The position numbers were made by a program, and so were the translations under genes. The notes under the pieces were generated by a model. It searched no databases and had not been told where the DNA came from. It saw nothing but the letters and a program-made list of their open reading frames with translations. Of a DNA stretch of 64,000 nucleotides, positions 2,569-38,303 are shown piece after piece; position 1 is the first letter of the stretch; the number at the start of each line of letters is the position of its first letter. Location: IMG/VR virus record IMGVR_UViG_3300023210_000031, positions 1-64,000 of that record; one strand, written 5' to 3'. This DNA comes from a virus.

Positions 2569-2801
2569 TATAGGTCTCCTCGCTTCTGGTTCCAGTCCAA
2601 GTTGCTCTCCTCGTTGGTGTCGTAATAGCTAGACTCCTCGAAGAGGGGAGCATAGCAAGCTTCACGGTCGTCCAACTCTGCCGCGACGGCAGCATACAAC
2701 TCGCCTAGCATCTCGTCGTCGAGGTGCTCAACAAACCGGGTTACATCTCGTGCCGCGAATCGTAACATGCTTAGCTGGGTGCTGGTGAGGTGCTTGGTCA
2801 T
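2568..2801 (-). CDS. First gene of the left operon, helical acidic protein
   Basis: 77 residues from MTKHLTSTQLSMLRFAARD. The start is decided by the ribosome binding site GGAAGGA 9 bases before ATG 2801; the longer frame would use a TTG that overlaps that site. It is the first gene after the sigma70-type promoter at 2841-2869. The centre (DDEMLGELYAAVAAELDD) is an acidic helix. Function unknown. Confidence 0.65.
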   Translation of the reverse strand: MTKHLTSTQLSMLRFAARDVTRFVEHLDDEMLGELYAAVAAELDDREACYAPLFEESSYYDTNEESNLDWNQKRGDL

Positions 2802-2819
2802 GGTGATCTGTCCTTCCAA

Positions 2820-2860
2820 AGTGATCTCTCTATATGATCTACTGTAGCAGAGTGATCTCT
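2820..2860 (-). promoter_or_regulatory. Twin AGTGATCTCT boxes around the left promoter
   Basis: On the plus strand AGTGATCTCT occurs at 2820-2829 and again at 2851-2860, flanking the -10 of the promoter at 2841-2869. Related boxes lie in the spacers of eight other promoters in the window. The arrangement looks like a pair of operator sites. Confidence 0.5.
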
Positions 2861-2869
2861 ATCTGTCAA
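2841..2869 (-). promoter_or_regulatory. Sigma70-type promoter, GATC in spacer
   Basis: On the minus strand, TTGACA (2864-2869), 17-base spacer, TACAGT (2841-2846). It drives the leftward operon of small genes beginning at 2801. The spacer contains the AGTGATCTCT-like box in inverted sense. Confidence 0.8.
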
Positions 2870-3254
2870 GCATATAATCAAGAAAAAGCACTAGATCTGT
2901 GATATAAATCACACCCTAAAATGCTTAGCAATTCCGTACCCTTACAAGGGGGAGCTATTTATTATATAAAAGAACGAAGGGGTATTGACAGACTACTTAT
3001 ATTGTGACTAGATACTACTAGCTTTTTCACTATATCCCAGTACCTCATTAGTATCCCTTGCTTACCCTTATCCCTTATATTTATATAACCTTATTATACT
3101 ATACAGGCACCACCACTTCTACTGTTAGAGCTTTGTAGCCCCAACTACTCCTTTCCCCCCTTATATAATAATAAAACTAAGCCCGTTTTGGCTGCTCATT
3201 GGCTGCTCATTGGCTGCTCATTGGCTAGTTCTTGGCTGGTAAGCTGGGCTCGCT
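2870..3254. other. Noncoding gap with tandem repeat
   Basis: About 385 bases without a credible gene. It is AT-rich, contains a plus-strand TTGACA at 2994-2999 without a strong -10, several TATA-like runs, and an 11-base tandem repeat at 3188-3226. It separates the leftmost operon from the membrane-protein genes. It could hold a replication or packaging element, but nothing diagnostic is seen. Confidence 0.5.
3188..3226. repeat. 11-base tandem repeat, three copies plus a partial
   Basis: The unit TTGGCTGCTCA occurs at 3188-3198, 3199-3209 and 3210-3220, followed by TTGGCT at 3221 and a degenerate TTGGCTGG nearby. It lies just downstream of the membrane-protein gene ending at 3255. Iterated sites like this may bind protein or result from slippage. 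Confidence 0.85.
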
Positions 3255-3819: not shown

Positions 3820-4014
3820 CTATTCCTTCTTACCTAATGTTTCTTTATAGTGCTTATCACACAATGAGCTTCCGTCTTTTCCTTGCCACTCTTTCTTCTC
3901 AAAGCAGTGATCACATTTGTTCTGGAAGTCTATCTCTACCATAAGCATTCTATATGCTATCTGTAATATCTTTCTCTTTAGCTTCTGGATATTCATAATA
4001 TTTATTTCTTTCAC
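3820..4014 (-). CDS. Small zinc-finger-like protein
   Basis: 64 residues. The C-terminal half has C-x2-C (CDHC), 13 residues, then C-x2-H (CDKH), a compact zinc-binding arrangement. The N terminus is a basic helix (IQKLKRKILQIAYRML). The ATG overlaps the end of the phosphomannomutase gene; ATG 3996 is an alternative start. It may be a nucleic-acid binding miniprotein. Confidence 0.6.
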   Translation of the reverse strand: MKEINIMNIQKLKRKILQIAYRMLMVEIDFQNKCDHCFEKKEWQGKDGSSLCDKHYKETLGKKE

Positions 4015-4754
4015 TCTCGGCTTAATTCTTCCAAGAGATGCTCGTATGTGCTGCTGTGGTGGTATACTTGCACCACTGTTCCGCCAGCCGACAATACTGC
4101 TTTGGCTAGCGAGTGATCGTTGCCTCCAACCTCACACTTGTCGCCAAAGAAAACAATCTCTTTGCCGATGATGCCCTTGCTTGACTGTAGGTAGTCCAAG
4201 ACTTGTGACTTGTCCTTCCCCTTGAGGCTTATGTCGATGCTTATCTCTCCCCCTACTGAAAAGTCATAATCACTGTGCCTCTGGCTCATCCTCTCTACAA
4301 AGGCTTCTCTCTCTTTCTCAACCTTATCAAAGGAAGCATACTTCTTTCGCTCTGTATGGGGTATGAGGCGACCACAGGATGAAACATTGATCATTCCTAC
4401 CCTTCTCTCTATGTGATTGCCATACCTTAGCGGGAAATTGCTCTTTCTTATGAAATCACCACAGTCAGATAGCAACTGGTTATCTTCTGGAAACTCGTTG
4501 GTGTATACCACCTTCCCACTCTCCGAGTATTGGTTACCTAGGCAAGTGAACACTCCCGTGAACTTGGCTATGACTTCCTTTGGTAGCTGCTCTTCCAACT
4601 TCTCTGGGTCTGAGCCTGTTACAATATAGCGATGAGCTGCTGATGGGAGGGCTAGCCATTCCGTAAGCAGTTGTAGCTCCTTCTTTGTTATCCTTTTTCT
4701 AGGCTCCGTCAGTGTGCCATCAACATCAAAAAGATATATACGATTCTCGCTCAT
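4011..4754 (-). CDS. Eukaryote-type phosphomannomutase (HAD superfamily)
   Basis: 247 residues, the usual length of the eukaryotic PMM family that converts mannose-6-phosphate to mannose-1-phosphate. The HAD nucleophile motif is at residues 10-16 (DVDGTLT). Further hallmarks are the IVTGSD segment, RVGMINVSSCGR (substrate-binding loop), GGEISIDI, and FFGDKCEVGGNDHSLA near residue 200 (metal-binding loop with the GGND signature). Bacterial hosts usually use the unrelated ManB type, so this gene was probably acquired. It may feed GDP-mannose synthesis for surface or DNA glycosylation. Stop and start overlaps link it to both neighbours. Confidence 0.85.
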   Translation of the reverse strand: MSENRIYLFDVDGTLTEPRKRITKKELQLLTEWLALPSAAHRYIVTGSDPEKLEEQLPKEVIAKFTGVFTCLGNQYSESGKVVYTNEFPEDNQLLSDCGDFIRKSNFPLRYGNHIERRVGMINVSSCGRLIPHTERKKYASFDKVEKEREAFVERMSQRHSDYDFSVGGEISIDISLKGKDKSQVLDYLQSSKGIIGKEIVFFGDKCEVGGNDHSLAKAVLSAGGTVVQVYHHSSTYEHLLEELSRE

Positions 4755-7238: not shown

Positions 7239-8096
7239 TCATGGCTTTGATACCATCAACACTTCCACGGCTTTCTTCGCTTTAAAGCCGGTATCGGTCT
7301 TCTTTCTCCTGCCTGCCGTATAAGTGACAGGGAAATCAACCAAGAGAGTCTCTCCCTTCAGTGCCTCAAAGAAGCCGTCATCAAGCTTTCTATTCGAAAG
7401 CATGGCATGAGCTCCCCTACTGGCACAAGAGTGGAAGTGATCAACAACCTTCTTTTGAAATTCGTCATCAGACCGTGTGCCGTAGTTAGTAAAGCATCCT
7501 CTATAGGGCGGATCCAAGAACACATATGAGCCTTTGCCGACCTGGGATAGTGTTTCTGAGAAATCAACGCTCGTCAAAGTACACCGCTGGAGGGCTTCAT
7601 TCCAAAGCAAGACATTATCTTTATCGTAAACTTTGTCTTTTTGATTTAGGAGTCCTGCCGGTGTGCCATATCTACCATTAGTATTCTTGTTTATCTGCCA
7701 TATGCCATTGAATCCCGTCTTCATGAGAAAGTATAATGTCGCTGCTTCAGTTGTCTTGTCCCACTGCTGATAATCGTAAGCGTGTTTGTGCCGGAGGGAG
7801 AAATAATACTGCTTCCTTTCCTCTTTGGAGAGAGGAAGATATTCTTTTGATAACTCATCCATCCTAAGAATAAACGACTCCACGTCGCCTTTGATGGCTG
7901 AGTATATAGACACAATAGACTCGTTAATGTCGTTTAGAAAGAACCTAGCTTCGGGGTTCCTCTTGTATGCCCACACAAACATGGCGCCACCGCCGCAGAA
8001 GGGCTCATGGTAAGAAGAGAACCCAGTCGGCAAGTGCTCCTGGTACTTTTTGAGCATTTTGGTTTTGCCGCCAGCCCAGATGAATAATGGCTTCAT
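7239..8096 (-). CDS. dam: D12-class adenine-N6 DNA methyltransferase
   Basis: 285 residues, standard for Dam/DpnM-type enzymes. It has the AdoMet loop FCGGG (residues 33-37) and the catalytic DPPY (195-198), with the order of motifs of the alpha/D12 class, including the N-terminal KPLFIWAGGKTKM block. It transfers a methyl group from AdoMet to adenine N6, most likely in GATC, although the target cannot be proven from sequence. It overlaps the upstream nuclease-like gene by 4 bases, an arrangement typical of restriction-modification pairs. GATC sites lie inside many promoters of this window, so it may also affect transcription. Confidence 0.92.
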   Translation of the reverse strand: MKPLFIWAGGKTKMLKKYQEHLPTGFSSYHEPFCGGGAMFVWAYKRNPEARFFLNDINESIVSIYSAIKGDVESFILRMDELSKEYLPLSKEERKQYYFSLRHKHAYDYQQWDKTTEAATLYFLMKTGFNGIWQINKNTNGRYGTPAGLLNQKDKVYDKDNVLLWNEALQRCTLTSVDFSETLSQVGKGSYVFLDPPYRGCFTNYGTRSDDEFQKKVVDHFHSCASRGAHAMLSNRKLDDGFFEALKGETLLVDFPVTYTAGRRKKTDTGFKAKKAVEVLMVSKP

Positions 8097-8599
8097 GATA
8101 ATCGCCTCTTGACTGTGTTAGCTAGTTCTCGTACATTTGAGCTGGTTAGGATAAAATATTGTTCTGGTTCTAGGAACTCTCTAAATTCGTTTCTATACTT
8201 TTCTGGATTTATTGTAGATACTTTTCCCTTCTTCGAACGTGTTTCAAAAGGCTTTTTAGCAGCAAAAGTTCTTCCAGAGAAGACGATAAGGGGGAGATAT
8301 CCTGCCTTCTCGACTTTCCCGTTAGCTACATACCGGTAGCATCTCTCGTGAGCATTTCCGCCGTTGAGACCTAGCTTATCATCAATGACAAGCTTTTTAC
8401 CGTTTCTCAGATTCTCTATCAAAAGTTCAGGCTGGATTGTGGTTTTGCCAATAGCTATTTTAGGCTTCTTTCTTATCGAGTATTCTGTCGGGCTTAAGCT
8501 CTCTGTAAGCAAAGAATGAGTTCTTGCTTCGTTTTTTGAGGCTCTCTTGCCTGTATCGGTCTGCCAGTTTTCTCGTTCTGATAAATGTTTTGCTGCCAT
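8093..8599 (-). CDS. Putative type II restriction endonuclease (PD-D/ExK-like)
   Basis: 168 residues. The central block has acidic residues (E58, E62) followed by KKLVIDDKLG (D73-x-K75), the layout of a PD-(D/E)xK active site. GGNAHERCYRY and YLPLIVFSG follow, which resemble the cross-over helix and next strand of small type II enzymes. Position supports the call: it overlaps the adenine methyltransferase by 4 bases. A 12-bp inverted repeat lies immediately upstream of its start. It could equally be a degraded or repurposed nuclease. Confidence 0.55.
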   Translation of the reverse strand: MAAKHLSERENWQTDTGKRASKNEARTHSLLTESLSPTEYSIRKKPKIAIGKTTIQPELLIENLRNGKKLVIDDKLGLNGGNAHERCYRYVANGKVEKAGYLPLIVFSGRTFAAKKPFETRSKKGKVSTINPEKYRNEFREFLEPEQYFILTSSNVRELANTVKRRLS

Positions 8600-8628
8600 G
8601 TAAATCTCCTAATCCTAAGTTGGTTCCA

Positions 8629-8673
8629 AAGCTTTCCCTTAGCGAAAGGAAAAGAAACTCCAAGGGAAAGCTT
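8629..8673 (-). promoter_or_regulatory. Perfect 12-bp inverted repeat upstream of nuclease gene
   Basis: AAGCTTTCCCTT (8629-8640) and its exact complement AAGGGAAAGCTT (8662-8673), separated by 21 bases. It lies 30 bases upstream of the start of the nuclease-like gene. It may be an operator or an RNA hairpin controlling expression of that gene, or a terminator-like structure after the ParB-like gene. Confidence 0.6.
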
Positions 8674-8709
8674 CGAAATGAGAAGTGTGCTATTTTTTAA
8701 AACAATTCA

Positions 8710-9693
8710 TTATAAACTTCGGTCATATCGGTCTAACAAGCTATCTTTGCCAATCTTTTTGGTCGGATATCCCAAGCCTAAATCCTTGTTTGCCTGCTTG
8801 AACTTTGACAAAATCCCCATCGAGATAGAAAACCCATCTCTGTTGACTTTCGACCCGCCCTCGGTTTTACATGAGCGAGAAAATTGTGACAAAGATTGCT
8901 GAGAGGTCATTCCCGTAAACCACTTCGAAAACTCAGGGCTCCTAACGAGAGGTGTGTGGGTCATAAATAGCATAGACAAGGCAATAAAGAGTTGATTAGG
9001 AAAAGCACTATCTTCTGGCTTTTCTAGTTGTCCAGTTGATCTCAGTATTCCAACAGCTTCCTTCCCAAGGGAAACATTTTCATCTCCAAGGATCGACATG
9101 ACTGTCTCAGCGGATCCGACCTTAACTCGTGGTCCGTCGGGATCTCCGACACTTCCATTCTGCTCGCCGGAGCAATATACCGATAGACCCATTTGACCGA
9201 TCTGTTGAGCTAGCTTCTTTTTGGCTCTGGCTCCGGACAAGACCTCATGGACAAAAACCTCTTCCCGCCTCAAGTCTGTACGACAGAGCTTGTTTTTCTC
9301 GACAAACCTTCTGTGAATCTCCCCTTTGCTTTCTACATCCACCACCCTAGCTAGCATCATATCTTCGTCTGGGTATGCTAGCTGAAAAATGTGCCTGGAG
9401 TGATCTCCGTCGTAAAGAATCCTCGTTCCATCAGGCAATCTTCCAACGGTGGGAGGATCCCATTTATCTGATTTGAAGCCACCGCCGTTCTTCAAGATTT
9501 TAGAGATGTTTGAATCTAAAGTATCTCGGTTTATCAAAGATTCTATTTTAACGGGGACGAGCTCAAGCTGTCGAAAGTAAGACTCTTTGCTCGGAGGTGG
9601 CACATACCCTGGTTTTGCCGCTTCCCGTAGCCTTAGTTCTTTATCAGGTCCAATTTCTTTTCCGGTTGATTTTTCAATTATCGTGTTTGACAT
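8710..9693 (-). CDS. ParB/sulfiredoxin-like domain protein
   Basis: 327 residues. Residues 85-125 contain VGRLPDGTRILYDGDHSRHI, the ParB/Srx-type fold signature (G-x-(H/D)-R) seen in phage ParB-like families. The C-terminal 170 residues are helical and could bind DNA. Phage ParB-like proteins are often nucleases or specificity factors rather than partition proteins. It lies between the two methyltransferase modules and has its own promoter at 9816-9844, so it may belong to the modification island. Confidence 0.65.
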   Translation of the reverse strand: MSNTIIEKSTGKEIGPDKELRLREAAKPGYVPPPSKESYFRQLELVPVKIESLINRDTLDSNISKILKNGGGFKSDKWDPPTVGRLPDGTRILYDGDHSRHIFQLAYPDEDMMLARVVDVESKGEIHRRFVEKNKLCRTDLRREEVFVHEVLSGARAKKKLAQQIGQMGLSVYCSGEQNGSVGDPDGPRVKVGSAETVMSILGDENVSLGKEAVGILRSTGQLEKPEDSAFPNQLFIALSMLFMTHTPLVRSPEFSKWFTGMTSQQSLSQFSRSCKTEGGSKVNRDGFSISMGILSKFKQANKDLGLGYPTKKIGKDSLLDRYDRSL

Positions 9694-9815
9694 AAAACAC
9701 TCCTCATCTCAGGCTTCTAATCGCCCCTCTGAAGGTTGAATGTGGTATCGTACTTTTTCCTCAGAAGTTTTCGGACACCAGCTTTGTTGCTCTGCCTTAT
9801 TGCTGAACATACTTT

Positions 9816-9844
9816 ATTATACCCGATCACTTTCATTATGTCAA
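9816..9844 (-). promoter_or_regulatory. Sigma70-type promoter, GATC in spacer
   Basis: TTGACA (9839-9844), 17-base spacer with AGTGATCGG, TATAAT (9816-9821) on the minus strand. It drives the ParB-like gene and the nuclease/Dam pair downstream. Confidence 0.9.
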
Positions 9845-9908
9845 GCATATAATCGGTGTTTTTTTACTTTTTTTATAACCTCTTGATTTATAACAGGTTT
9901 TATTTTTA

Positions 9909-9927
9909 CAGATCTGGATCAGATCTG
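9909..9927. repeat. Twin CAGATCTG palindromes
   Basis: CAGATCTG at 9909-9916 and 9920-9927, separated by GAT. Each 8-mer is self-complementary and the whole 19 bases is also an inverted repeat with three GATC sites. It looks like a dimer-binding site. Confidence 0.75.
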
Positions 9928-9935
9928 CTTAGAAT

Positions 9936-10039
9936 ATCCATCGCCACAGATCAGAAAAAGTCGTTACTTTATAGTAGCATAGGAGCCTGACCGTAAGTGC
10001 TCGGATCTATTGACTTTCTCTGCTCAGGTGGCGATGGAT
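9936..10039. repeat. Long-spaced 12-base inverted repeat
   Basis: ATCCATCGCCAC (9936-9947) and GTGGCGATGGAT (10028-10039) are exact complements, 80 bases apart. They lie just after the second nuclease-like gene. The arms could pair in RNA to form a large hairpin or mark a protein site. Confidence 0.7.
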
Positions 10040-10062
10040 GTGTTTCAACTCGCTATTTCTTT

Positions 10063-10965
10063 TTATGCCGCTGCTTCAAACAAGGTGGGCATAATCTCGC
10101 CAGCCGGGGCTATCACCACCACATCTGGCGGGAGGACTTCCAAGACCTTCGACAAGGATGCTCTAAATTGTGGATTATGATAATTTTCCTTCTCGATGCC
10201 TCCGGAGCCCTTCATTTGTAGTGCTAGTGGTCCAAGATAAATGGCAGAAGCTCTGCCGTTGTAATAGTTCGGCTCCCATTCGTAGCTACTACAAATCTCG
10301 TCTATGAGGACATCCACAGGATATCCAACAAGCTTGTCAGCATTAGACTTCCCCGCTAGCGACGATTGGCACCATACCATGAAGTCCACTCCATCGGTTG
10401 CGGTCACCCCTCTCTTAAAAACTACCTCTAGTATTTCACGCTTAATAGCGATATCGTTGAAATAGCTTAGAAATGCACCGCGAAGGTTTACTGGAATAGA
10501 ATCCCACACTGCTCGTTGTCGCCTTTGTTCATGCTCGTAATCAAGAGAATCGTAGTCAACTCCTAGTCTATCACAATCGCTCTGAAACTTTTGACTACAC
10601 TTATCGCCGAAAAACAAATTAAAGAATTCCACCACATCTTCTGGGGTTTCCTTCACTTTGCCCAACTGAGCCAAAAGCTTAAGTTCTTTGATAACCTGCA
10701 TCTGAATCGTCGTGCCATTTGATTTTGGATTCTTGATACTGACACCATATGGCTTTACCCTGTTCGGACTTAATACCTCAATATCACTCTTGCTTGTTGC
10801 CGTCGGTGCGATATTCCCGCGAACAATCTGCTTTGCTTTGGTTGCGATTATGCCACTACAGTCTGCTGCATTGATACATTCTATAATCGCCTCCTCGAAC
10901 TCATACCCTTCGGCTCGCCCTTTGGCGCCTGCTTCTTGTTTCTTATTCTTCTTCTTTTTATTCAT
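10063..10965 (-). CDS. Putative restriction endonuclease paired with C5 methyltransferase
   Basis: 300 residues with a very basic N terminus (MNKKKKNKKQEAGAKGRAEG). Residues 55-85 carry KSDIEVL (D61) and PYGVSIKNPKSNG (K78), a PD-(D/E)xK-like site with Ser in the middle acidic position, as in some type II enzymes; E24/E25 may complete it. It overlaps the cytosine methyltransferase by 8 bases, the main support for a restriction role. No exact family was recognised. It could be a structure-specific or inactive nuclease. Confidence 0.5.
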   Translation of the reverse strand: MNKKKKNKKQEAGAKGRAEGYEFEEAIIECINAADCSGIIATKAKQIVRGNIAPTATSKSDIEVLSPNRVKPYGVSIKNPKSNGTTIQMQVIKELKLLAQLGKVKETPEDVVEFFNLFFGDKCSQKFQSDCDRLGVDYDSLDYEHEQRRQRAVWDSIPVNLRGAFLSYFNDIAIKREILEVVFKRGVTATDGVDFMVWCQSSLAGKSNADKLVGYPVDVLIDEICSSYEWEPNYYNGRASAIYLGPLALQMKGSGGIEKENYHNPQFRASLSKVLEVLPPDVVVIAPAGEIMPTLFEAAA

Positions 10966-12196
10966 TTACTTTATCCTTTCCCACGGTGGGGATGTTATTT
11001 ATAAGTGCCTTCGCCATCATTGGCGGAAAGCACTCTCCTAGAACTTTCCTTAGAAAGCCCTCTCTCCTCTTAGTATGCTCTAAGTGATCTACCCAGTCTT
11101 CGGGCAACCCCACTATAGCACACAATTCTTTTATTGTTAATACCCTTGCATCAGAAAAAGTACCATCGCCGTTATCGTTGCCTGGATGTACATTGTTTTG
11201 ACTATTGATAGAGCCATTTGTCATCCCCACAGTTGGAGCTGGTTCGTCCCACTTTATTCTTCTGTATGTGGACTCAAATCCGCTAACTTGTCTTGTCTCG
11301 ATGGTAACTTCTTTAAGCTTTACAGTTTTTGTTTTCATCTTCCGATATCTCTTTCTCTTATCCGAACTGAACTCATTCATTCGTTCATCGTCTTGCAAGA
11401 GTTTCGCGAAACCATCGTGTCTAACTTTAGGGTAATAAATCTTGTTGTGATATGCGGTATTGCCGGTTGCCGTATGCCGCATCCAATTAATATGATGTTT
11501 ATTGTGTGTCCAATATTCCATAGAGTGCCACTTGATGTCCGATTTCTCCCCAGATTCAAGAGGTAGAAGGTGCCCAATAGCTTCACGAACAGTAGCCTTC
11601 TTTGTGAGCTTCTTCGGGGGATCCCACACCGGGCACCCTTTTTTAGAGAGCAGTGTGATCAATCGCTGGCGATGGTGGGGAGTGCCATAGTTTGCCGCAT
11701 CTAGCACCTCATATCTCATTTCATAATCTGCCGCGAGCTCTCTCTCGATGTATGGCATAATGTTCGTTGGCTTATCGTCATCATCTAAAATAAATGTCTT
11801 CTTGCTTGCCATGCCACGGACATTCTCAATAAGAGCATAGTCCGGCTGCAAGTCCTTGATCGCACGGACAGCTTGTTTAATCAAGCTGTTTTTTTCCTGA
11901 ATCTTAGGATCGTCCTTCTTTGCGCGCAAGGCATGGGATGCACTCATGCCCTGGCACGGTGGAGTTGCTAGAATGAAATCAACACCGGCAGCTTTACTTT
12001 TAGAAATAATTTCGCTAAAAATATCTGACTTGGTAATGTCGCCGGCAATCATTTCTGTCTCGGGGTGCATCTTAGAGTAGAACTCTGCCCGATCTTCGAG
12101 CTTCTCATTGGCAACGACTACTTCTATACCACACTGGTCAAAATATGTTTCTCCGATGCCGACATTGGCAAACAAAGATAGGCATTTAAAATTCAC
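10958..12196 (-). CDS. Cytosine-C5 DNA methyltransferase
   Basis: 412 residues from a GTG start (12196) with GGAGG 4 bases upstream; the longer ATG at 12229 sits inside the -10 box of its promoter and is excluded. Motif I is CLSLFANVGIGETYF, motif IV PPCQGMS with the catalytic Cys, motif VI ENVRGM, motif VIII near GTPHHRQRL, and motifs IX-X RRIKWDEPAPTVGM and QNNVHP. It methylates cytosine C5 at an unknown target. It overlaps the following nuclease-like gene, giving a restriction-modification-like pair. Confidence 0.92.
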   Translation of the reverse strand: MNFKCLSLFANVGIGETYFDQCGIEVVVANEKLEDRAEFYSKMHPETEMIAGDITKSDIFSEIISKSKAAGVDFILATPPCQGMSASHALRAKKDDPKIQEKNSLIKQAVRAIKDLQPDYALIENVRGMASKKTFILDDDDKPTNIMPYIERELAADYEMRYEVLDAANYGTPHHRQRLITLLSKKGCPVWDPPKKLTKKATVREAIGHLLPLESGEKSDIKWHSMEYWTHNKHHINWMRHTATGNTAYHNKIYYPKVRHDGFAKLLQDDERMNEFSSDKRKRYRKMKTKTVKLKEVTIETRQVSGFESTYRRIKWDEPAPTVGMTNGSINSQNNVHPGNDNGDGTFSDARVLTIKELCAIVGLPEDWVDHLEHTKRREGFLRKVLGECFPPMMAKALINNIPTVGKDKVNE

Positions 12197-12227: not shown

Positions 12228-12256
12228 ATTATAGCAGATCACATTTGGCTTGTCAA
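12228..12256 (-). promoter_or_regulatory. Sigma70-type promoter, GATC in spacer
   Basis: TTGACA (12251-12256), 17-base spacer with TGTGATCTG, TATAAT (12228-12233) on the minus strand. It drives the cytosine methyltransferase/nuclease pair. Confidence 0.9.
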
Positions 12257-12270
12257 GCAGTATTTTCGTT

Positions 12271-13167
12271 TTATTTGGATGGTTGTTTGAGGTATGTCTT
12301 CCGAGCCGCTGCTCGAAGTCTATCTAGGTATTTCGACTCTTCTTCTGGAAAGTCTATCTCGTTACGGAAATCGATGAATTTCAGCATCGTATCCATCAGC
12401 GGGTAGCGCTCTCCCATCTCCTCTGAGAGGAGTTCCATAGTCTTGGCTTGCTTCTTACGGGCGAGGAGGAAGACTTCTCTGGGAGGGATGTCAAGAGCTC
12501 TGAAGTCGTCTTTTAGCTCCTTTAGCATCTCGAACTGCTTCATGTACCTAAAGAATTGCCATACGAGCAGATCTGCCTTGGCTATTGGTCCCATTTCAGA
12601 CATCATCTTGGGAAGGTATAGTGTTCCGAGTGCCACATGTCTTGCCTCGTCCTTTTCATACATCAGAAGCAGGTCCGATAGCACAGGCTCGATGTTTCTC
12701 TCCCTCACTACCTTGAACAGAGTAAGAGCCATCGGCTCAACCATCATTTGCATACCTAGTATCATTTTGGGTGTCGTGTCTGCTTCCATTATCGACTGGA
12801 GAAAGTCTTGGGAGTGACTCTTCATTCCTTGGACATCGGCTGTCTCTATTCCTAGGAAACGGAGGTAGTCTCTCATCACATAAAAGTGTCTGGCTTCGTC
12901 GTGTGCCTGTGATGTCGCTGCCATCCTGGCTGGCTCGTCTTCGAACCGGGCTGCCAAGATGGAAGATATCTTCCAGGCTGCCAGTTCGCCCCACAAGATG
13001 GTGCTAAAAATGTTTCCAAGGGCATTCTTTTTCTCTGGGGTAAGGCTTATTCCGCTGTTCTTTTCGATACATGCCTGGAGATATTCTCTACCATCCCAGA
13101 TGTTTTTCTGCCCCTTGTGGTAAAGTTGCTCTATTCTATTGCTATTTCTGTATTCTTCGATAGACAT
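12271..13167 (-). CDS. Ferritin-like di-iron protein
   Basis: 298 residues, all-helical. The two-iron carboxylate signature is complete: Glu in WGELAAW (about residue 61), E-x2-H in DEARHF (about 91-94), Glu in MMVEPMAL (about 144), and E-x2-H in KDEARHVAL (about 173-176). This is the pattern of ribonucleotide reductase R2, fatty-acyl desaturases and AurF-type oxygenases. A cobalamin-dependent reductase is encoded elsewhere, so a NrdB role is unlikely. It may be an oxygenase or desaturase acting on lipid, nucleotide or aromatic substrate. Confidence 0.75.
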   Translation of the reverse strand: MSIEEYRNSNRIEQLYHKGQKNIWDGREYLQACIEKNSGISLTPEKKNALGNIFSTILWGELAAWKISSILAARFEDEPARMAATSQAHDEARHFYVMRDYLRFLGIETADVQGMKSHSQDFLQSIMEADTTPKMILGMQMMVEPMALTLFKVVRERNIEPVLSDLLLMYEKDEARHVALGTLYLPKMMSEMGPIAKADLLVWQFFRYMKQFEMLKELKDDFRALDIPPREVFLLARKKQAKTMELLSEEMGERYPLMDTMLKFIDFRNEIDFPEEESKYLDRLRAAARKTYLKQPSK

Positions 13168-21868: not shown

Positions 21869-23044
21869 TTATTTTAGTACCAACACCCTCTCTTTGGTCT
21901 TAAAGTAAGGCATCGATGCTCCGTTTGAGTCCGTTATCCAAGCTCTCTGGCATTTAGAAGCCTTTGGCATCGGAGCATACATGTCTGTCAATATCAGGTG
22001 ACCATCAAACTTATGTTGATTCACATACTCTGTTGGGGCATCAAAATTGGTTCCCCCTCTTAGAACCCTATTCAGTTCTCGGCGCTCACCCTTTTTCCAG
22101 ACAAATACTTCGTCAGTATAAACCAAGTCATCGAATGGAACCACTACAAACTCTGCAATCTTGGCGAGAGCCTCAAGCTCTGAGAAGAAAAGCTCAAGAA
22201 GGCTATCGCTTACCGAGCCAGACTGGTCAATACTAATAGCTATCCTTGCCTGTCGCTCTGACTTCTTGCCGGCATGTATGTATGGGTATCGGCGGTTAAT
22301 TCGTTTGATAGAAGACTTCTTGGATGATGTCTGAGATGTCCTCACGAAGTATCTAAGCATCTTTCGCCAGTCAATCGTGGCAGAGCTCACCTTTGTCCGA
22401 ATCTGCTCTCTGATGCTGTGAGATAGAGAGCCCCAGCCTCGCCCCTTATCACACTCCTCGACAGCCTTCTTAGCCATGTCTTTGAATCTCTCTTTGGCTA
22501 TTTCTTTGGTCTGAGAATCACTTTTGCCCCAAGATTCGTGGCTATCAAACTGACCCTCTGGGCTTCCGGAGCCCCCTGCTGAGCCTGACTGAGGAGACAT
22601 GAAGCTTGGATCCTTCTCCTTCTTCTTCTTAAGCTCTTCGAAGTACCATTCCGCTGTTTGGAGTGGGATCATCTCGCTGAAATCGTCAACTCCTGGAATA
22701 CAACACTTTGGAGGTAGCTCGCTCTTTAAAAATCCGTTGATAGCAAGATCTGTAGCAATGTTCCACATCGGAGACATTCCCTCTTCTGGAAGTCTTTCGG
22801 TAACATGTTCGAAAACAAGGTGGTAGAACTCGTGCTTGATGACACCAGCTTTCTGTTGATCGGTGAGGGTATCGAAATACTGGGGGTTATAAAACATCTC
22901 GAACTGACCGGAGTCTGGGTTGATTCCTATTCCAGCCGTGGGTACCCCTAGGGTTTCTCTCTTATCAATTCGCCGGGAAAGAGCAGCAAAAAACGGCTCA
23001 TCCTGTAGGAGCCTGAATATATGTTTGTTCAGATCAAACGACAT
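21869..23044 (-). CDS. VWA-domain zinc-protease-like protein (MoxR partner)
   Basis: 391 residues. It has a HExxH zinc motif in IKHEFYHLVFEH (H71-E-x2-H75) near the N terminus, a disordered Gly/Ser linker (about 150-175), and a C-terminal von Willebrand A domain with MIDAS DQSGS (273-277). This is the layout of the VWA-like metallopeptidase family (DUF2201) that pairs with MoxR AAA ATPases. The MoxR-type gene is 0.8 kb upstream. Such pairs remodel or mature proteins and metal centres; here the target could be a host complex or phage particle. Confidence 0.75.
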   Translation of the reverse strand: MSFDLNKHIFRLLQDEPFFAALSRRIDKRETLGVPTAGIGINPDSGQFEMFYNPQYFDTLTDQQKAGVIKHEFYHLVFEHVTERLPEEGMSPMWNIATDLAINGFLKSELPPKCCIPGVDDFSEMIPLQTAEWYFEELKKKKEKDPSFMSPQSGSAGGSGSPEGQFDSHESWGKSDSQTKEIAKERFKDMAKKAVEECDKGRGWGSLSHSIREQIRTKVSSATIDWRKMLRYFVRTSQTSSKKSSIKRINRRYPYIHAGKKSERQARIAISIDQSGSVSDSLLELFFSELEALAKIAEFVVVPFDDLVYTDEVFVWKKGERRELNRVLRGGTNFDAPTEYVNQHKFDGHLILTDMYAPMPKASKCQRAWITDSNGASMPYFKTKERVLVLK

Positions 23045-23829: not shown

Positions 23830-24930
23830 TTACGGCTGCTCTACGGCTTCCTGATCTGTCATATTCGAGACCAAGGACACAACGTGATCCCCGATCCGCT
23901 TTCCTTCCACTTCTGTGCCGTGAAAGCTGAGAATATTCTCTCTCAATGGAGACTTTCCTATGATGCTAAACAGCTTCATTGCCATTTCACCGGGAATTGA
24001 TACAAAGTATCCGGCGAGATTCGAGAGATTGCTTTCAGATAAGAGAGTGTTGAATACTCCAGAAGCTTCCATCTTCTCAATCAAGGCACCGTGCTCATTG
24101 ATGTCGAAGTCTTTCGTCATCGAAACATTGCCTTCATGGATAACATCCTCAACAGTAACCTGTTTGCCATAATTGATGGCGAAATCTCTGAGAGCGATTG
24201 CAGCTTCGAAGCCGACGAAACCCTGAGAAAGAGTAAAGAGTAGAGGCTCGTGCATCTGAGCTAGCTGGTCTGGACATGTCTTGAGTGTCTTGTCGAGCCG
24301 GACCCAGGATCGTCGGCTGGGGTATACTTTGTTCGGCTCGAAGTTATCCAGGTGCTCAAGATGGCTTCGATTCTGGTTGATGAAATCCCATACCACTTCC
24401 GAAACTTCCCCCTTCGACCATGTTAACCAATCTTCGACTGTGGGCTCCACATCAAAAACAGTGTATCGATCCAGTTCTGCTGGATCCATTTCCCCTACTT
24501 GATACTCCGAACCGTGCTCTCCGCCATTGACGGCAGCAACGATGACAGTATTCTCGTGTAGAGAGTACCCATTGATCTTCCGGCTATCGGTGAGCTCGAA
24601 AATTCCCTGCCTCACTTCTGGGATTGCTCTGTCTATCTCGTCTAGAAAGAGCAGCACTCCACGGGAACATGCTTCCGTGAACCAATCTGGTGGATTCCAT
24701 CGGGTTGATGAAGAGTCTGAGGAGATTGACGGCAAGCCAATCAGATCGCCTTCCGTCATCTGCGATGCTCGTCTCTCGATAACACCATCGGTGTATCCCA
24801 GCATTTCCTCAATCTGGTAGACTATTTCTGACTTGCCGATGCCGTGGCGACCTCGAAGGATAACAGGGTATCGAGCCCCAAGGACGACGGGGGCTGCTGA
24901 AAGAAACGTTTTAAAATCTACTGATGCCAT
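23830..24930 (-). CDS. MoxR-type AAA+ ATPase
   Basis: 366 residues. Walker A is GRHGIGKSEI (about residue 30), Walker B LLFLDEIDRA (about 100), sensor 1 VIVAAVNGGE, and an arginine-finger region near ELDRYTVFDVEP. This is the MoxR/RavA branch of AAA+ ATPases, which work with VWA-domain partners. The partner gene lies next to it downstream. TTACTTAC, weakly like the late element, lies upstream. Probably a phage-encoded remodelling machine. Confidence 0.8.
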   Translation of the reverse strand: MASVDFKTFLSAAPVVLGARYPVILRGRHGIGKSEIVYQIEEMLGYTDGVIERRASQMTEGDLIGLPSISSDSSSTRWNPPDWFTEACSRGVLLFLDEIDRAIPEVRQGIFELTDSRKINGYSLHENTVIVAAVNGGEHGSEYQVGEMDPAELDRYTVFDVEPTVEDWLTWSKGEVSEVVWDFINQNRSHLEHLDNFEPNKVYPSRRSWVRLDKTLKTCPDQLAQMHEPLLFTLSQGFVGFEAAIALRDFAINYGKQVTVEDVIHEGNVSMTKDFDINEHGALIEKMEASGVFNTLLSESNLSNLAGYFVSIPGEMAMKLFSIIGKSPLRENILSFHGTEVEGKRIGDHVVSLVSNMTDQEAVEQP

Positions 24931-31726: not shown

Positions 31727-33292
31727 CTAGTCCTCGATAATGGCGTGACTCGTAGTAATAAGTGTCCCTATTGCCGATACAGCATTCTGAAGAGCACACC
31801 TGGTTACTTTTGCCGGATCTATGATCCCGCTGCCCAGCAGATCCACCGTATTGCCTGTTGACATATCGAAGCCATAGCCCTCGTCAAGCCCTAGAGCTCC
31901 GTCTAGCAAGACATCTGGCTTCTTGCCGGCATTAGCCGCCATTTGCCGTAAGGGCTCCTGAATCGCCTTGAGCACAATCTGAGCACCATATTCCTGGTCA
32001 GAGTTATCTGCCTGTATCTCCACACCTCGGGCTGCCGACAGGAGTGCCATGCCTCCGCCACATACCATCCCCTCTTGCTGAGCTGACTTCACTGCCTCAA
32101 GAGCATCTTCGATGCGATGCTTCTTTTCTGTCATCTCTATTTCAGTGTTGCCCCCCACACTAATGATAGCAATGCCGCTAGCCAATCTGGTAATCCTCTC
32201 TTGAATTCTCTCACAAGCCTGCATGTTGTCTGTCTGCTCGAAGAGTGACTTGAGAGATTCGATCCTTTGTTCTACCTGGGCAGTATCCCCGTTGCCGCCA
32301 ACGATGGTTGTGGCTATCTTTGATGCCTCAATCGTTTTAGCATTTCCGAGGTGAGTCAATTTGATATCACGAAGACTGAGCCCTGACTCCCTGGTTACAA
32401 AAGTGGCACCGACACTGGTAGCCAAGTCTTGGAGGATGTTCCTTCGCTCGTCTCCGTAGCGAGGTGCCTTGATGGCGGCAACCTTCATTGTTCCCCTCAC
32501 CGTATTCATAATCATTGCCGCTAAAGCCTGACCCTCAATCTCTTCTGCTACGACGACGATGGGGCGACCATCTCGTGCCGCCAGTTCTAGTGCTGGGAGG
32601 ATGTCTTCCACGAACTCAATCTTTTCGTCTGTGATTAGGAAGAGAGGATCGTTATACTTTAGAACTCCTCTCCGCTCATCAGTGATAAAGGCACTGGCGG
32701 CATAGCCGCTGTCGAAGCGAAAGCCCTCAACTACATCTAGGCTGGTCTCTAGCGACTTGCCGTCCTCGATGGTTATTGAGCCGTCTTTGCCGATCATGTC
32801 GATGGCTGTGGAGATGAGCTTTCCTATTGTCCGATCACCGTTAGCCGAGATGGTGGCGATGTCTTCGATGTCGTCAAGCTTCGTCACCCTCTTAGCACTG
32901 GCTCGGAGATTATTTACGATAACGGCTGTTGCCTTGTCGATGCCTCGCTTGAGCTCAACTGGAGATGCTCCAGCAGCGATGTATTTCTGTGCCTCAATGA
33001 AGATTGCCCGAGAGAGGACGATGGCTGTGGTGGTGCCGTCACCAGCACTGGTGTTCGTCTCTTCGCTTGCCTGTTTGATTACTTGGGCACCGACATTTTC
33101 GAATGGGTCAGTAAAGTCTATGAACCGTGCTACTGTTACCCCGTCTTTGGTTATGATCGGATTTCCATTCTTAGGCTGGATAACAACATTCCTGCCCCTT
33201 GGTCCCATTGTGGCGGCAACATTGTCCGCCAACTTGTTAACTCCGTCTAGAATTTTTTGTGATAAAGAACTGCCGTCATCATAATTTTTCAT
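31727..33292 (-). CDS. groEL: GroEL-type chaperonin
   Basis: 521 residues, slightly shorter than bacterial GroEL (about 545). The ATP site is intact (GDGTTTA at 84-90), as are DGVTVA (50-55), VEGFRFDSGY, KAPRYGDERR and VCGGGMALL. The C-terminal Gly-Gly-Met tail is missing: it ends SHAIIED. Phage GroELs fold phage proteins or substitute for host chaperonin. Two small GroES-like candidates are encoded far away (6667 and 45090). It has its own promoter with a 16-base spacer. Confidence 0.95.
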   Translation of the reverse strand: MKNYDDGSSLSQKILDGVNKLADNVAATMGPRGRNVVIQPKNGNPIITKDGVTVARFIDFTDPFENVGAQVIKQASEETNTSAGDGTTTAIVLSRAIFIEAQKYIAAGASPVELKRGIDKATAVIVNNLRASAKRVTKLDDIEDIATISANGDRTIGKLISTAIDMIGKDGSITIEDGKSLETSLDVVEGFRFDSGYAASAFITDERRGVLKYNDPLFLITDEKIEFVEDILPALELAARDGRPIVVVAEEIEGQALAAMIMNTVRGTMKVAAIKAPRYGDERRNILQDLATSVGATFVTRESGLSLRDIKLTHLGNAKTIEASKIATTIVGGNGDTAQVEQRIESLKSLFEQTDNMQACERIQERITRLASGIAIISVGGNTEIEMTEKKHRIEDALEAVKSAQQEGMVCGGGMALLSAARGVEIQADNSDQEYGAQIVLKAIQEPLRQMAANAGKKPDVLLDGALGLDEGYGFDMSTGNTVDLLGSGIIDPAKVTRCALQNAVSAIGTLITTSHAIIED

Positions 33293-37019: not shown

Positions 37020-37499
37020 TTACCTAGTGATCGCTCCCATCAGCGGGTTTTGTTGCTTCCAGTGGTCCCGAAAAACAACAACTGCAGACGGAAATGGAGC
37101 TGACATACTGCTATCGCTAAATTTGATTCGCCCTTTTATGAAGTAGATCTCGGCGGCTTTCATACAATATTCGTGCCAATACGATGTATCAGTCCGAGAA
37201 GGTATCAGCATTACAACAGTGGTCTTTTCTTTTCGACTCTCGTCGTAAGCCTTTTTTACCCAGCTCTTTATCGCCTTGCCATATGGTGGGTTGACGAATA
37301 TTGATTTGTTCGGTCCCCATTCCTGTGCTAGTCCGTCGTCGTCCTCCGTAAAGAAGTTCTTACATTTAGCATTATCGGTGGAGGCACAAGGATCCAAATC
37401 AAAGCTGAACTCCTCGTTTAGTTTGTCGAACAGCTTTTGAGGAGTTTCCCAACTCATATCTTTACTGCTAAACATAACCTTTTTTGTATTCTTATCCAT
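37020..37499 (-). CDS. Phage-type DNA N6-adenine methyltransferase
   Basis: 159 residues, the length of the phage Dam family (PF05869-like). Signature: WETPQKLFDKLNEEFSFDLD (start), IFVNPPYGKAIKSW (catalytic NPPY), TVVMLIPSRTDTSYWHEY and AEIYFIKGRIKF. It transfers methyl groups to adenine N6 and is the third DNA methyltransferase in the window, unrelated to the D12 enzyme. It may block host restriction or mark phage DNA. Confidence 0.85.
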   Translation of the reverse strand: MDKNTKKVMFSSKDMSWETPQKLFDKLNEEFSFDLDPCASTDNAKCKNFFTEDDDGLAQEWGPNKSIFVNPPYGKAIKSWVKKAYDESRKEKTTVVMLIPSRTDTSYWHEYCMKAAEIYFIKGRIKFSDSSMSAPFPSAVVVFRDHWKQQNPLMGAITR

Positions 37500-37640: not shown

Positions 37641-37776
37641 CATTGAACTCCTCACACATTCGCTCAAGCCCCATTGGAGCCGTGAAAGCTGAAAGAAGGA
37701 GGGCTGTGATAATGAAGCCTGCTAATGATGCTATTATTATCAAAAAGATACCATCATAATGTTTTTTGCCGCTCAA
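37627..37776 (-). CDS. 49-residue membrane microprotein, TTG start
   Basis: A TTG at 37776 with GGGGAG about 6 bases upstream overlaps the TGA of the dUTPase gene (TTGA), giving MSGKKHYDGIFLIIIASLAG and FIITALLLSAFTAPMGLERM, ending DAGE. A single long membrane helix and a short acidic tail. Coupled translation with dUTPase is likely. Confidence 0.5.
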   Translation of the reverse strand: MSGKKHYDGIFLIIIASLAGFIITALLLSAFTAPMGLERMCEEFNDAGE

Positions 37777-38303
37777 GACCGCTCCCCTTCGAAGTCGAAG
37801 CACATATCAGCATACACAGGAAGCTTCGAAAGCAGATCCTGCTTCTTGTTGTCGGTGCTCCCAAGTGCGCCATCCTTACGATCACTCATCGCTATTGGAT
37901 AGTAGTTATACAAATCTTGGTCATGCTTCTCGAATGCCTTGAAGTGGACAATCGGATACATCACCACCTGGGCAATTTTATCACCTGGACTGATTTGTCG
38001 CTGCTCTGTGCCAACATTGTGTAGGTTGACAAAGACTTCGCCATCGTAGCCTGGGTCGATAACACAGGCTCCGACCAGCAGATTCTTCTTGGAAGCATTA
38101 CCAGAGCGGTTCTTCACCTCCAAGCAGTATCCGTGAGGAATACCAAACTTGTAGCCTGTCTGAAACAGCTTGCTTTGACCGGGCTCGATTGAAATCGACT
38201 CTTTGTTTTCTGGATTGAAAAACAAATCCAATCCTGCATCGCTCGGGTTTGCCCGTTCGGGAGGCAAAGCATCTTCTCTTACTCTTACATATTCTAGTAT
38301 CAT
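37773..38303 (-). CDS. dut: dUTPase
   Basis: 176 residues, trimeric dUTPase type. All five motifs are present: DAGLDLFF, RSGNASKK, GACVIDPGYDGEV, SPGDKIAQVV and the P-loop-like RKDGALGSTD. It converts dUTP to dUMP and PPi, keeping uracil out of DNA. An insertion of about 15 residues before the last motif (EKHDQDLYNYYP) is unusual but seen in some phage enzymes. The gene overlaps GIY-YIG-like and microprotein genes. Confidence 0.93.
   Translation of the reverse strand: MILEYVRVREDALPPERANPSDAGLDLFFNPENKESISIEPGQSKLFQTGYKFGIPHGYCLEVKNRSGNASKKNLLVGACVIDPGYDGEVFVNLHNVGTEQRQISPGDKIAQVVMYPIVHFKAFEKHDQDLYNYYPIAMSDRKDGALGSTDNKKQDLLSKLPVYADMCFDFEGERS

What the first reader, a model, noticed from the sequence alone, without database searches (positions are those of the whole stretch)
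7239..12196. Two methyltransferase/nuclease pairs in one phage
A D12 adenine methyltransferase overlaps a small protein with a PD-(D/E)xK-like core, and a C5 cytosine methyltransferase overlaps a second protein with a similar core. Each pair is an operon with overlap of 4-8 bases. Phages commonly carry orphan methyltransferases but rarely complete restriction-modification units. They could attack competing phages or host DNA.
Basis: partly seen in the sequence, partly recalled or inferred. Interest (0 to 1): 0.62.

Follow-up and report, generated by a model that had tools for sequence, protein, structure and literature searches.

The report
Swappable restriction-modification cassettes in marine phage
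This uncultured phage carries two complete gene pairs for restriction-modification, each a DNA-marking enzyme beside a relative of a known DNA-cutting enzyme; a near-identical phage has swapped one pair for two others at the same spot, so phages appear to use and trade a weapon usually credited to bacteria.

Summary
Both small proteins are homologues of solved type II restriction endonucleases. The 168-aa protein beside the D12 adenine methyltransferase is MunI/EcoRI-like (profile vs PDB 1e-7; predicted model vs MunI Z 10.6; GNAxER recognition motif). The 300-aa protein beside the C5 methyltransferase is HinP1I-like (profile 1.2e-6; model Z 17.7, next hit 6.5). Both pairings recur in other viruses: 43 of 80 relatives of the D12 enzyme have the MunI/EcoRI-like nuclease next to or near them. 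All eight HinP1I-like relatives lie beside C5 enzymes, though only there were they sought. In relatives the MunI/EcoRI-like nucleases are under purifying selection. A sister virus keeps the first pair but has replaced the second with an HNH/D12 pair and an MvaI-like/N4 pair, across shared promoter leaders. Complete R-M systems are known in chloroviruses and marseilleviruses; multi-system, exchanging cassettes in a tailed phage are the new part. Caveat: in this phage and its sister the MunI-like nuclease has its two catalytic acids exchanged (D to E, E to D), is unusually diverged, and shows 5 nonsynonymous to 2 synonymous changes. Its activity is uncertain. No cleavage, target site or host was tested.

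The parts
7239..8096 (-). D12-class N6-adenine DNA methyltransferase (pair 1), 285 aa, motifs FIWAGGK and DPPY intact
   Evidence: Pfam PF02086 4.5e-34 and NCBIfam dam 4.7e-49, both above cut-off; closest solved DpnM and EcoDam, but the GATC-enzyme loop (FNGLYRVN..FNVPYG) is replaced by FNGIWQINKNTNGRYGTPAG
8093..8599 (-). MunI/EcoRI-like restriction endonuclease homologue (pair 1), 168 aa; catalytic positions E58/D73/K75 (D/E/K in relatives), recognition motif GNAHER 81-86
   Evidence: A2 profile vs PDB: MunI 1.1e-7; AF2 pLDDT 85.6; Foldseek top hit MunI, VIA Z 10.6, rmsd 2.5 over 125 aa; alignment
8710..9693 (-). ParB-like (DGDH motif) protein, 327 aa, accessory or regulator of unknown role, recurrent beside these pairs
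   Evidence: No convincing database hit itself; phmmer relatives next to D12 pairs in L017-L019 (E 4e-26; weak DndB) and, weakly (0.02), between nuclease and methyltransferase in L061/L075 (weak DUF6551)
9787..9865 (-). Promoter leader TTGACA-N17-TATAAT shared with two places of the sister virus; likely recombination border and promoter of the 327 aa-nuclease-D12 group
   Evidence: 14 sites with at most 1 mismatch vs 0-5 in shuffles; 91% over 79 bp to G001 1164-1242, inside an 85% block to G001 2622-3020
10063..10965 (-). HinP1I-like restriction endonuclease homologue (pair 2), 300 aa; motif SKSD61...S76-I-K78, GPLALQMKGSG, YHxxQF
   Evidence: A3 profile vs PDB HinP1I 1.2e-6; hhalign 2.7e-7 with SKSDIEV over YKSDINV; AF2 pLDDT 77.8; VIA Z 17.7, rmsd 3.2 over 225 aa, next 6.5
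10958..12196 (-). C5-cytosine DNA methyltransferase (pair 2), 412 aa from GTG at 12196 (ORF open to 12229), motifs PPCQ and ENV intact
   Evidence: Pfam PF00145 4.4e-42; PADLOC MTase_II PDLC03384 6e-93; closest annotated M.LlaJI of pNP40, 36%
12228..12256 (-). Perfect sigma70-type promoter of pair 2 (TTGACA-N17-TATAAT)

Best explanation
The locus is a phage-borne island of type II restriction-modification (R-M) cassettes. In each cassette the methyltransferase would mark the phage's own replicating DNA at a short site, and the partner nuclease would cut DNA that lacks the mark at that site in the infected cell. Pair 1 (D12 + MunI/EcoRI-like) is predicted to act on a site containing AATT; pair 2 (C5 + HinP1I-like) on a GCGC-like site. 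Shown here: gene pairing, homology and predicted fold of both nucleases, recurrence of both pairings across viruses, and cassette exchange between two near-identical phages. Inferred: enzymatic activity, site specificity, and the target. I think the most likely target is DNA of competing phages, because near-identical phages carry different sets, which host-DNA breakdown alone would not favour; breakdown of unmethylated host DNA is a second likely effect. Pair 2 is likely active; pair 1's nuclease may be weakened or altered.
For: Homology and fold of both nucleases. 34 of 80 viral D12 relatives have the MunI/EcoRI-like gene directly adjacent and 9 more within 2 kb. All eight HinP1I-like relatives lie beside C5 enzymes, before, after or convergent. 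Purifying selection on MunI/EcoRI-like nucleases in close virus pairs, dN/dS about 0.02-0.23, like their methyltransferases. The sister virus G001 keeps pair 1 (97% DNA identity) but has an HNH + D12 pair and an MvaI_BcnI (Pfam 4.5e-17) + N4 methyltransferase pair in place of pair 2 and the ParB-like gene, with 95-97% flanks and shared promoter leaders at the borders. GAATTC (14 seen, 14.1 expected) and CAATTG (16 seen, 13.3 expected) are not avoided although many other palindromes are, as expected of a self-protected site. No integrase family hit in either fragment.
Against: The pair 1 nuclease has E58 and D73 where the other 22 of 24 aligned proteins have D and E. Its identity to relatives is 33-38% at methyltransferase identity 60-65%, where the relative L052 keeps 46-60%. 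Between the two sister phages it has 5 nonsynonymous and 2 synonymous changes, so it may be degenerate or repurposed. No cleavage or methylation data exist, and no cultured relative. The HinP1I-like relatives were found only in the flanks of C5 enzymes, so their pairing rate is biased upward. GCGC is mildly under-represented (27 seen, 45 expected), which does not especially favour self-protection at GCGC.
Confidence: 0.74

Rival explanations
1. Host takeover: the nucleases mainly cut the unmethylated host chromosome to stop host transcription and feed phage nucleotide pools, while the methyltransferases protect phage DNA.
For: The phage encodes ribonucleotide reductase, and an ORF at 37773-38303 reads as dUTPase by eye; there is no integrase hit. 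Chloroviruses package R-M nucleases that are held responsible for early host DNA degradation (PMC7019647).
Against: It does not explain why near-identical phages exchange cassettes of different specificity. In marseilleviruses an R-M system did not degrade host DNA (PMC7253447).
Confidence: 0.3
2. Anti-restriction: the methyltransferases are kept to mask phage DNA from host restriction, and the nucleases are passengers or decaying remnants.
For: 37 of 80 D12 relatives have no such nuclease in the DNA held, and L019/L020 keep only a 40-aa C-terminal remnant of it. The pair 1 nuclease has altered acids and a relaxed-looking substitution pattern. The genome avoids several palindromes, pointing to pressure from host restriction.
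Against: MunI/EcoRI-like nucleases of relatives are under strong purifying selection; the pair 2 motif is intact; G001 carries further nuclease-methyltransferase pairs.
Confidence: 0.2
3. The nuclease-like proteins are not restriction enzymes but other PD-(D/E)xK proteins, such as recombination or repair nucleases, that merely sit beside methyltransferases.
For: Holliday-junction resolvases and other nucleases also match the models at lower score.
Against: Best matches by sequence profile and by fold are MunI and HinP1I specifically, with recognition motif GNAxER and C-terminal motif QxKG shared.
Confidence: 0.05

Closest known systems
MunI / EcoRI type IIP restriction enzymes
   Same: PD-(D/E)xK fold, N-terminal similarity to MunI (LSxRxNWQ), GNAxER recognition segment, adenine methyltransferase partner
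   Different: Shorter (168 vs about 200 to 277 aa); catalytic D and E exchanged in the window protein; partner is a D12 (Dam-like) methyltransferase; encoded by a phage
HinP1I type II restriction enzyme
   Same: Fold over 225 residues, KSD..xK core, QxKG C-terminal motif, C5 methyltransferase partner
   Different: Only 13% identical over the structural alignment; S76-I-K78 in place of Q-V-K in HinP1I; longer C-terminus; the C5 enzyme is nearest M.LlaJI
Chlorovirus and marseillevirus R-M systems (PMC7019647, PMC7253447)
   Same: Virus-encoded adjacent nuclease and methyltransferase pairs, patchy presence among close relatives
   Different: Those infect eukaryotes; here it is a tailed-phage genome with two or three different systems in one exchanging locus
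Orphan phage Dam-like methyltransferases
   Same: Same D12 family; solitary versions occur in related viruses
   Different: Here a nuclease gene overlaps the methyltransferase gene

Membership tests
Type II restriction-modification system | Adjacent endonuclease and DNA methyltransferase genes | tested here: met
   Both pairs, overlaps of 4 and 8 bases; recur in relatives
Type II restriction-modification system | Nuclease cuts a site that the methyltransferase protects | not testable with these tools
   No biochemical or methylation data
MunI/EcoRI endonuclease family (168 aa) | PD-(D/E)xK fold closest to MunI | tested here: met
   Foldseek rank 1; VIA Z 10.6, rmsd 2.5 over 125 aa; profile 1.1e-7
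MunI/EcoRI endonuclease family (168 aa) | GNAxER recognition segment | tested here: met
   GNAHER at 81-86; G, N, A, E and R invariant in 24 sequences
MunI/EcoRI endonuclease family (168 aa) | Catalytic D...E-x-K | tested here: inconclusive
   Acids present but exchanged: E58...D73-D-K75; K invariant. Effect on activity unknown, so it is called a homologue, not an active member
HinP1I endonuclease family (300 aa) | HinP1I fold | tested here: met
   VIA Z 17.7, rmsd 3.2 over 225 aa, next 6.5; the relative L187 passes the Pfam R-HINP1I cut-off, 1.9e-11
HinP1I endonuclease family (300 aa) | SD...(Q/S)xK catalytic core | tested here: met
   SKSD61...S76-I-K78; K59, D61, S76 and K78 invariant in 9 sequences; hhalign pairs SKSDIEV with YKSDINV. 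That SD..QxK is the HinP1I core is from my own knowledge
HinP1I endonuclease family (300 aa) | Cleaves GCGC | not testable with these tools
   No cleavage data
D12 adenine methyltransferase | Pfam D12 above cut-off, DPPY motif | tested here: met
   118.8 bits vs cut-off 22; FLDPPY in sequence
C5 cytosine methyltransferase | Pfam PF00145 above cut-off, PCQ and ENV motifs | tested here: met
   145 bits vs cut-off 22; PPCQ and ENV invariant in alignment
Orphan phage methyltransferase | No companion nuclease gene | tested here: not met
   Companion nuclease homologues overlap both genes

The most novel reading that the evidence does not exclude
Tailed marine phages keep a dedicated exchange island in which type II R-M cassettes of differing specificity are swapped between shared promoter leaders, so that near-identical phages exclude one another's DNA (a phage-to-phage incompatibility system), with ParB-like proteins as regular accessories.
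Probability: 0.3. Interest if true: 0.75.

Novelty: new variant of a known kind. Interest (0 to 1): 0.56.

Why it matters
Restriction-modification is usually seen as a bacterial defence against phages, and phage methyltransferases as solitary. Here a lineage of tailed phages carries several complete pairs and exchanges them between close relatives. That makes it testable whether phages use restriction against one another, and whether many orphan phage methyltransferases are leftovers of lost nucleases. It also offers small MunI/EcoRI-like and HinP1I-like enzymes for characterisation.

Tried and rejected
Direct searches with the two nucleases found nothing in phage or plasmid records and little in IMG/VR; the route that worked was through their methyltransferases. 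The genome-contig scan with the 300-aa protein found nothing. The C5 enzyme being nearest M.LlaJI suggested an LlaJI-type system, but the LlaJI locus has two C5 enzymes, an AAA ATPase and an LlaJI-family nuclease, and no second C5 enzyme, ATPase or LlaJI-family nuclease was found beside this gene. GATC as the D12 target was considered because of Dam-family hits; the specificity loop differs from DpnM and EcoDam, so it is left open. HMMER's own alignment of A3 to HinP1I placed the catalytic segment elsewhere; hhalign was used for residues. Literature searches for phage-encoded complete R-M found precedents in eukaryotic viruses and a sea-ice study reporting orphan enzymes in phages, but no report of this locus; the held library is partial.

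Full report
What is there. The window is most of an IMG/VR virus record of 64,394 bases. Its genes in this region are all on the minus strand. The C5 gene most likely starts at GTG 12196, behind GGAGG, because the upstream ATG at 12229 lies inside the -10 box of a perfect TTGACA-N17-TATAAT promoter. The record encodes a phage head maturation protease, a weak tape-measure match, a weak baseplate-wedge match, UvsX, a replicative helicase, a DNA polymerase, ribonucleotide reductase and GroEL. It has no integrase hit. The closest UvsX among named phages is only about 30% identical, so it is an uncultured tailed-phage lineage. That it is marine is inferred from the company of its relatives, not tested.

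Methyltransferases. The D12 protein passes Pfam and NCBIfam cut-offs, and the C5 protein passes the Pfam cut-off. The closest annotated C5 relative is M.LlaJI of plasmid pNP40 at 36% identity. A third, solitary methyltransferase lies at 37020-37499.

Nuclease 1. The 168-aa protein alone gives only weak hits to MunI. Relatives were reached through the D12 enzyme: of 80 viral loci with a D12 relative, 34 have a homologous small nuclease directly adjacent and 9 within 2 kb. They fall into a MunI-like group (GNAHER) and an EcoRI-like group (PDGG...EGKKQ...GNAIER). The profile of 24 sequences finds MunI at 1.1e-7. The AlphaFold2 model (pLDDT 85.6) matches MunI best (Foldseek 3e-5; VIA Z 10.6, rmsd 2.5 over 125 residues). 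K75 and the G, N, A, E and R of the GNAxER segment are invariant. The catalytic acids are D and E in 22 of 24 sequences, but E58 and D73 in the window and its sister virus.

Nuclease 2. The 300-aa protein has no convincing hits alone. Eight relatives turned up in the flanks of C5 relatives: upstream, downstream or convergent, and always next to the C5 gene. Because only such flanks were searched, the pairing rate is biased upward, but the changing gene order shows that the association, not a frozen arrangement, is kept. The profile of nine sequences finds HinP1I at 1.2e-6. One relative, from a Thiovulum genome, passes Pfam's HinP1I cut-off. The model (pLDDT 77.8) matches HinP1I at Z 17.7 over 225 residues, far above the next hit at 6.5. 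hhalign places SKSDIEV over YKSDINV.

Selection. Between related viruses the MunI/EcoRI-like nucleases show dN/dS of about 0.02 to 0.23, similar to their methyltransferases, so they are functional genes in general. For the window against sister G001, the D12 fragment shows dN/dS 0.075. The nuclease shows only 7 changes, 5 of them nonsynonymous, with synonymous divergence of 0.018 against about 0.13 to 0.3 for most of the backbone. This suggests a recent exchange and relaxed or altered constraint; the numbers are small. The window nuclease is also unusually far from its relatives for the divergence of its methyltransferase.

Cassette exchange. G001 is nearly collinear with the window. In place of the C5/HinP1I-like pair and the ParB-like gene it has an HNH protein + D12 methyltransferase and an MvaI/BcnI-family nuclease + N4 methyltransferase. 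Homology resumes at 7456-8610 (97%), in a leader at 9666-10067 (85%) and from 12248 (95.5%). A 79-bp piece of that leader with its promoter occurs a second time in G001, directly before the MunI-like gene. The leaders therefore look like both the promoters and the homology used for exchange; this last step is inference.

From complete to solitary. Of the 80 D12 loci, 37 have no such nuclease in the DNA held, although some contigs are short. L019 and L020 keep a 40-aa C-terminal remnant of it in front of the methyltransferase, direct evidence that R-M pairs become orphan methyltransferases in these phages.

Function. The most economical reading is that these are working R-M modules of the phage. 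Precedents exist: chlorovirus R-M nucleases are packaged and are held responsible for early host DNA degradation (PMC7019647), whereas in marseilleviruses host DNA is not degraded and exclusion of other viruses is proposed (PMC7253447). Turnover of specificity between near-identical phages fits competition between phages or evasion of host restriction better than host takeover alone. Which is right cannot be decided from sequence.

Ordinary and new. The protein families are known and virus-encoded R-M is known. Several different type II systems in one exchanging locus of a tailed phage, and a wide EcoRI/MunI-like R-M family in viruses, are the new part as far as the searches here reach. I rate it a new variant of a known kind.

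Noticed in passing
window, whole; G001: GGCC is almost absent (4 seen, about 200 expected; 0 of 150 in G001), and several palindromes (TGCA, CTCGAG, CAGCTG, CGATCG) are strongly avoided, suggesting hosts with HaeIII-like and other restriction. Some related viral loci also avoid GGCC.
   Followed up: partly
window 8710-9693; L018 4945-5880; L061, L074, L075 2985-4004; L060 2925-4004: ParB-like proteins with a DG(D/Q)H motif recur beside or inside these R-M cassettes in three layouts (before the nuclease, after the D12 gene, between nuclease and D12). Role unknown; weak DndB and DUF6551 similarity.
   Followed up: partly
L019 and L020, 122 bases upstream of the D12 gene at 4001: A 40-aa open frame is the C-terminal remnant of the MunI-like nuclease in front of an intact D12 gene: decay from R-M pair to orphan methyltransferase.
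   Followed up: yes
window 7163, 9844, 12256, 52769 (minus strand): Perfect TTGACA-N17-TATAAT promoters share a spacer end TGATCnG next to the -10 box; at 12256 the ORF's first ATG overlaps the -10 box. A GATC beside the -10 box could make them methylation-sensitive.
   Followed up: no
window 37020-37499: A third, solitary phage-type DNA methyltransferase, 159 aa (phrog_111 3.5e-62, PADLOC orphan MTase 3.7e-58), 99% identical in the sister virus.
   Followed up: no
window 21869-23044 and 23830-24930: A DUF2201 metallopeptidase/VWA protein near an ORF that by eye looks like a MoxR-type AAA ATPase; PHROGs calls the former an HNH endonuclease, which Pfam does not support.
   Followed up: no
window 31727-33292, 12271-13167, 4011-4754: Phage-encoded GroEL, a weak AurF-like (diiron oxygenase) protein and a phosphomannomutase-like HAD hydrolase.
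   Followed up: no
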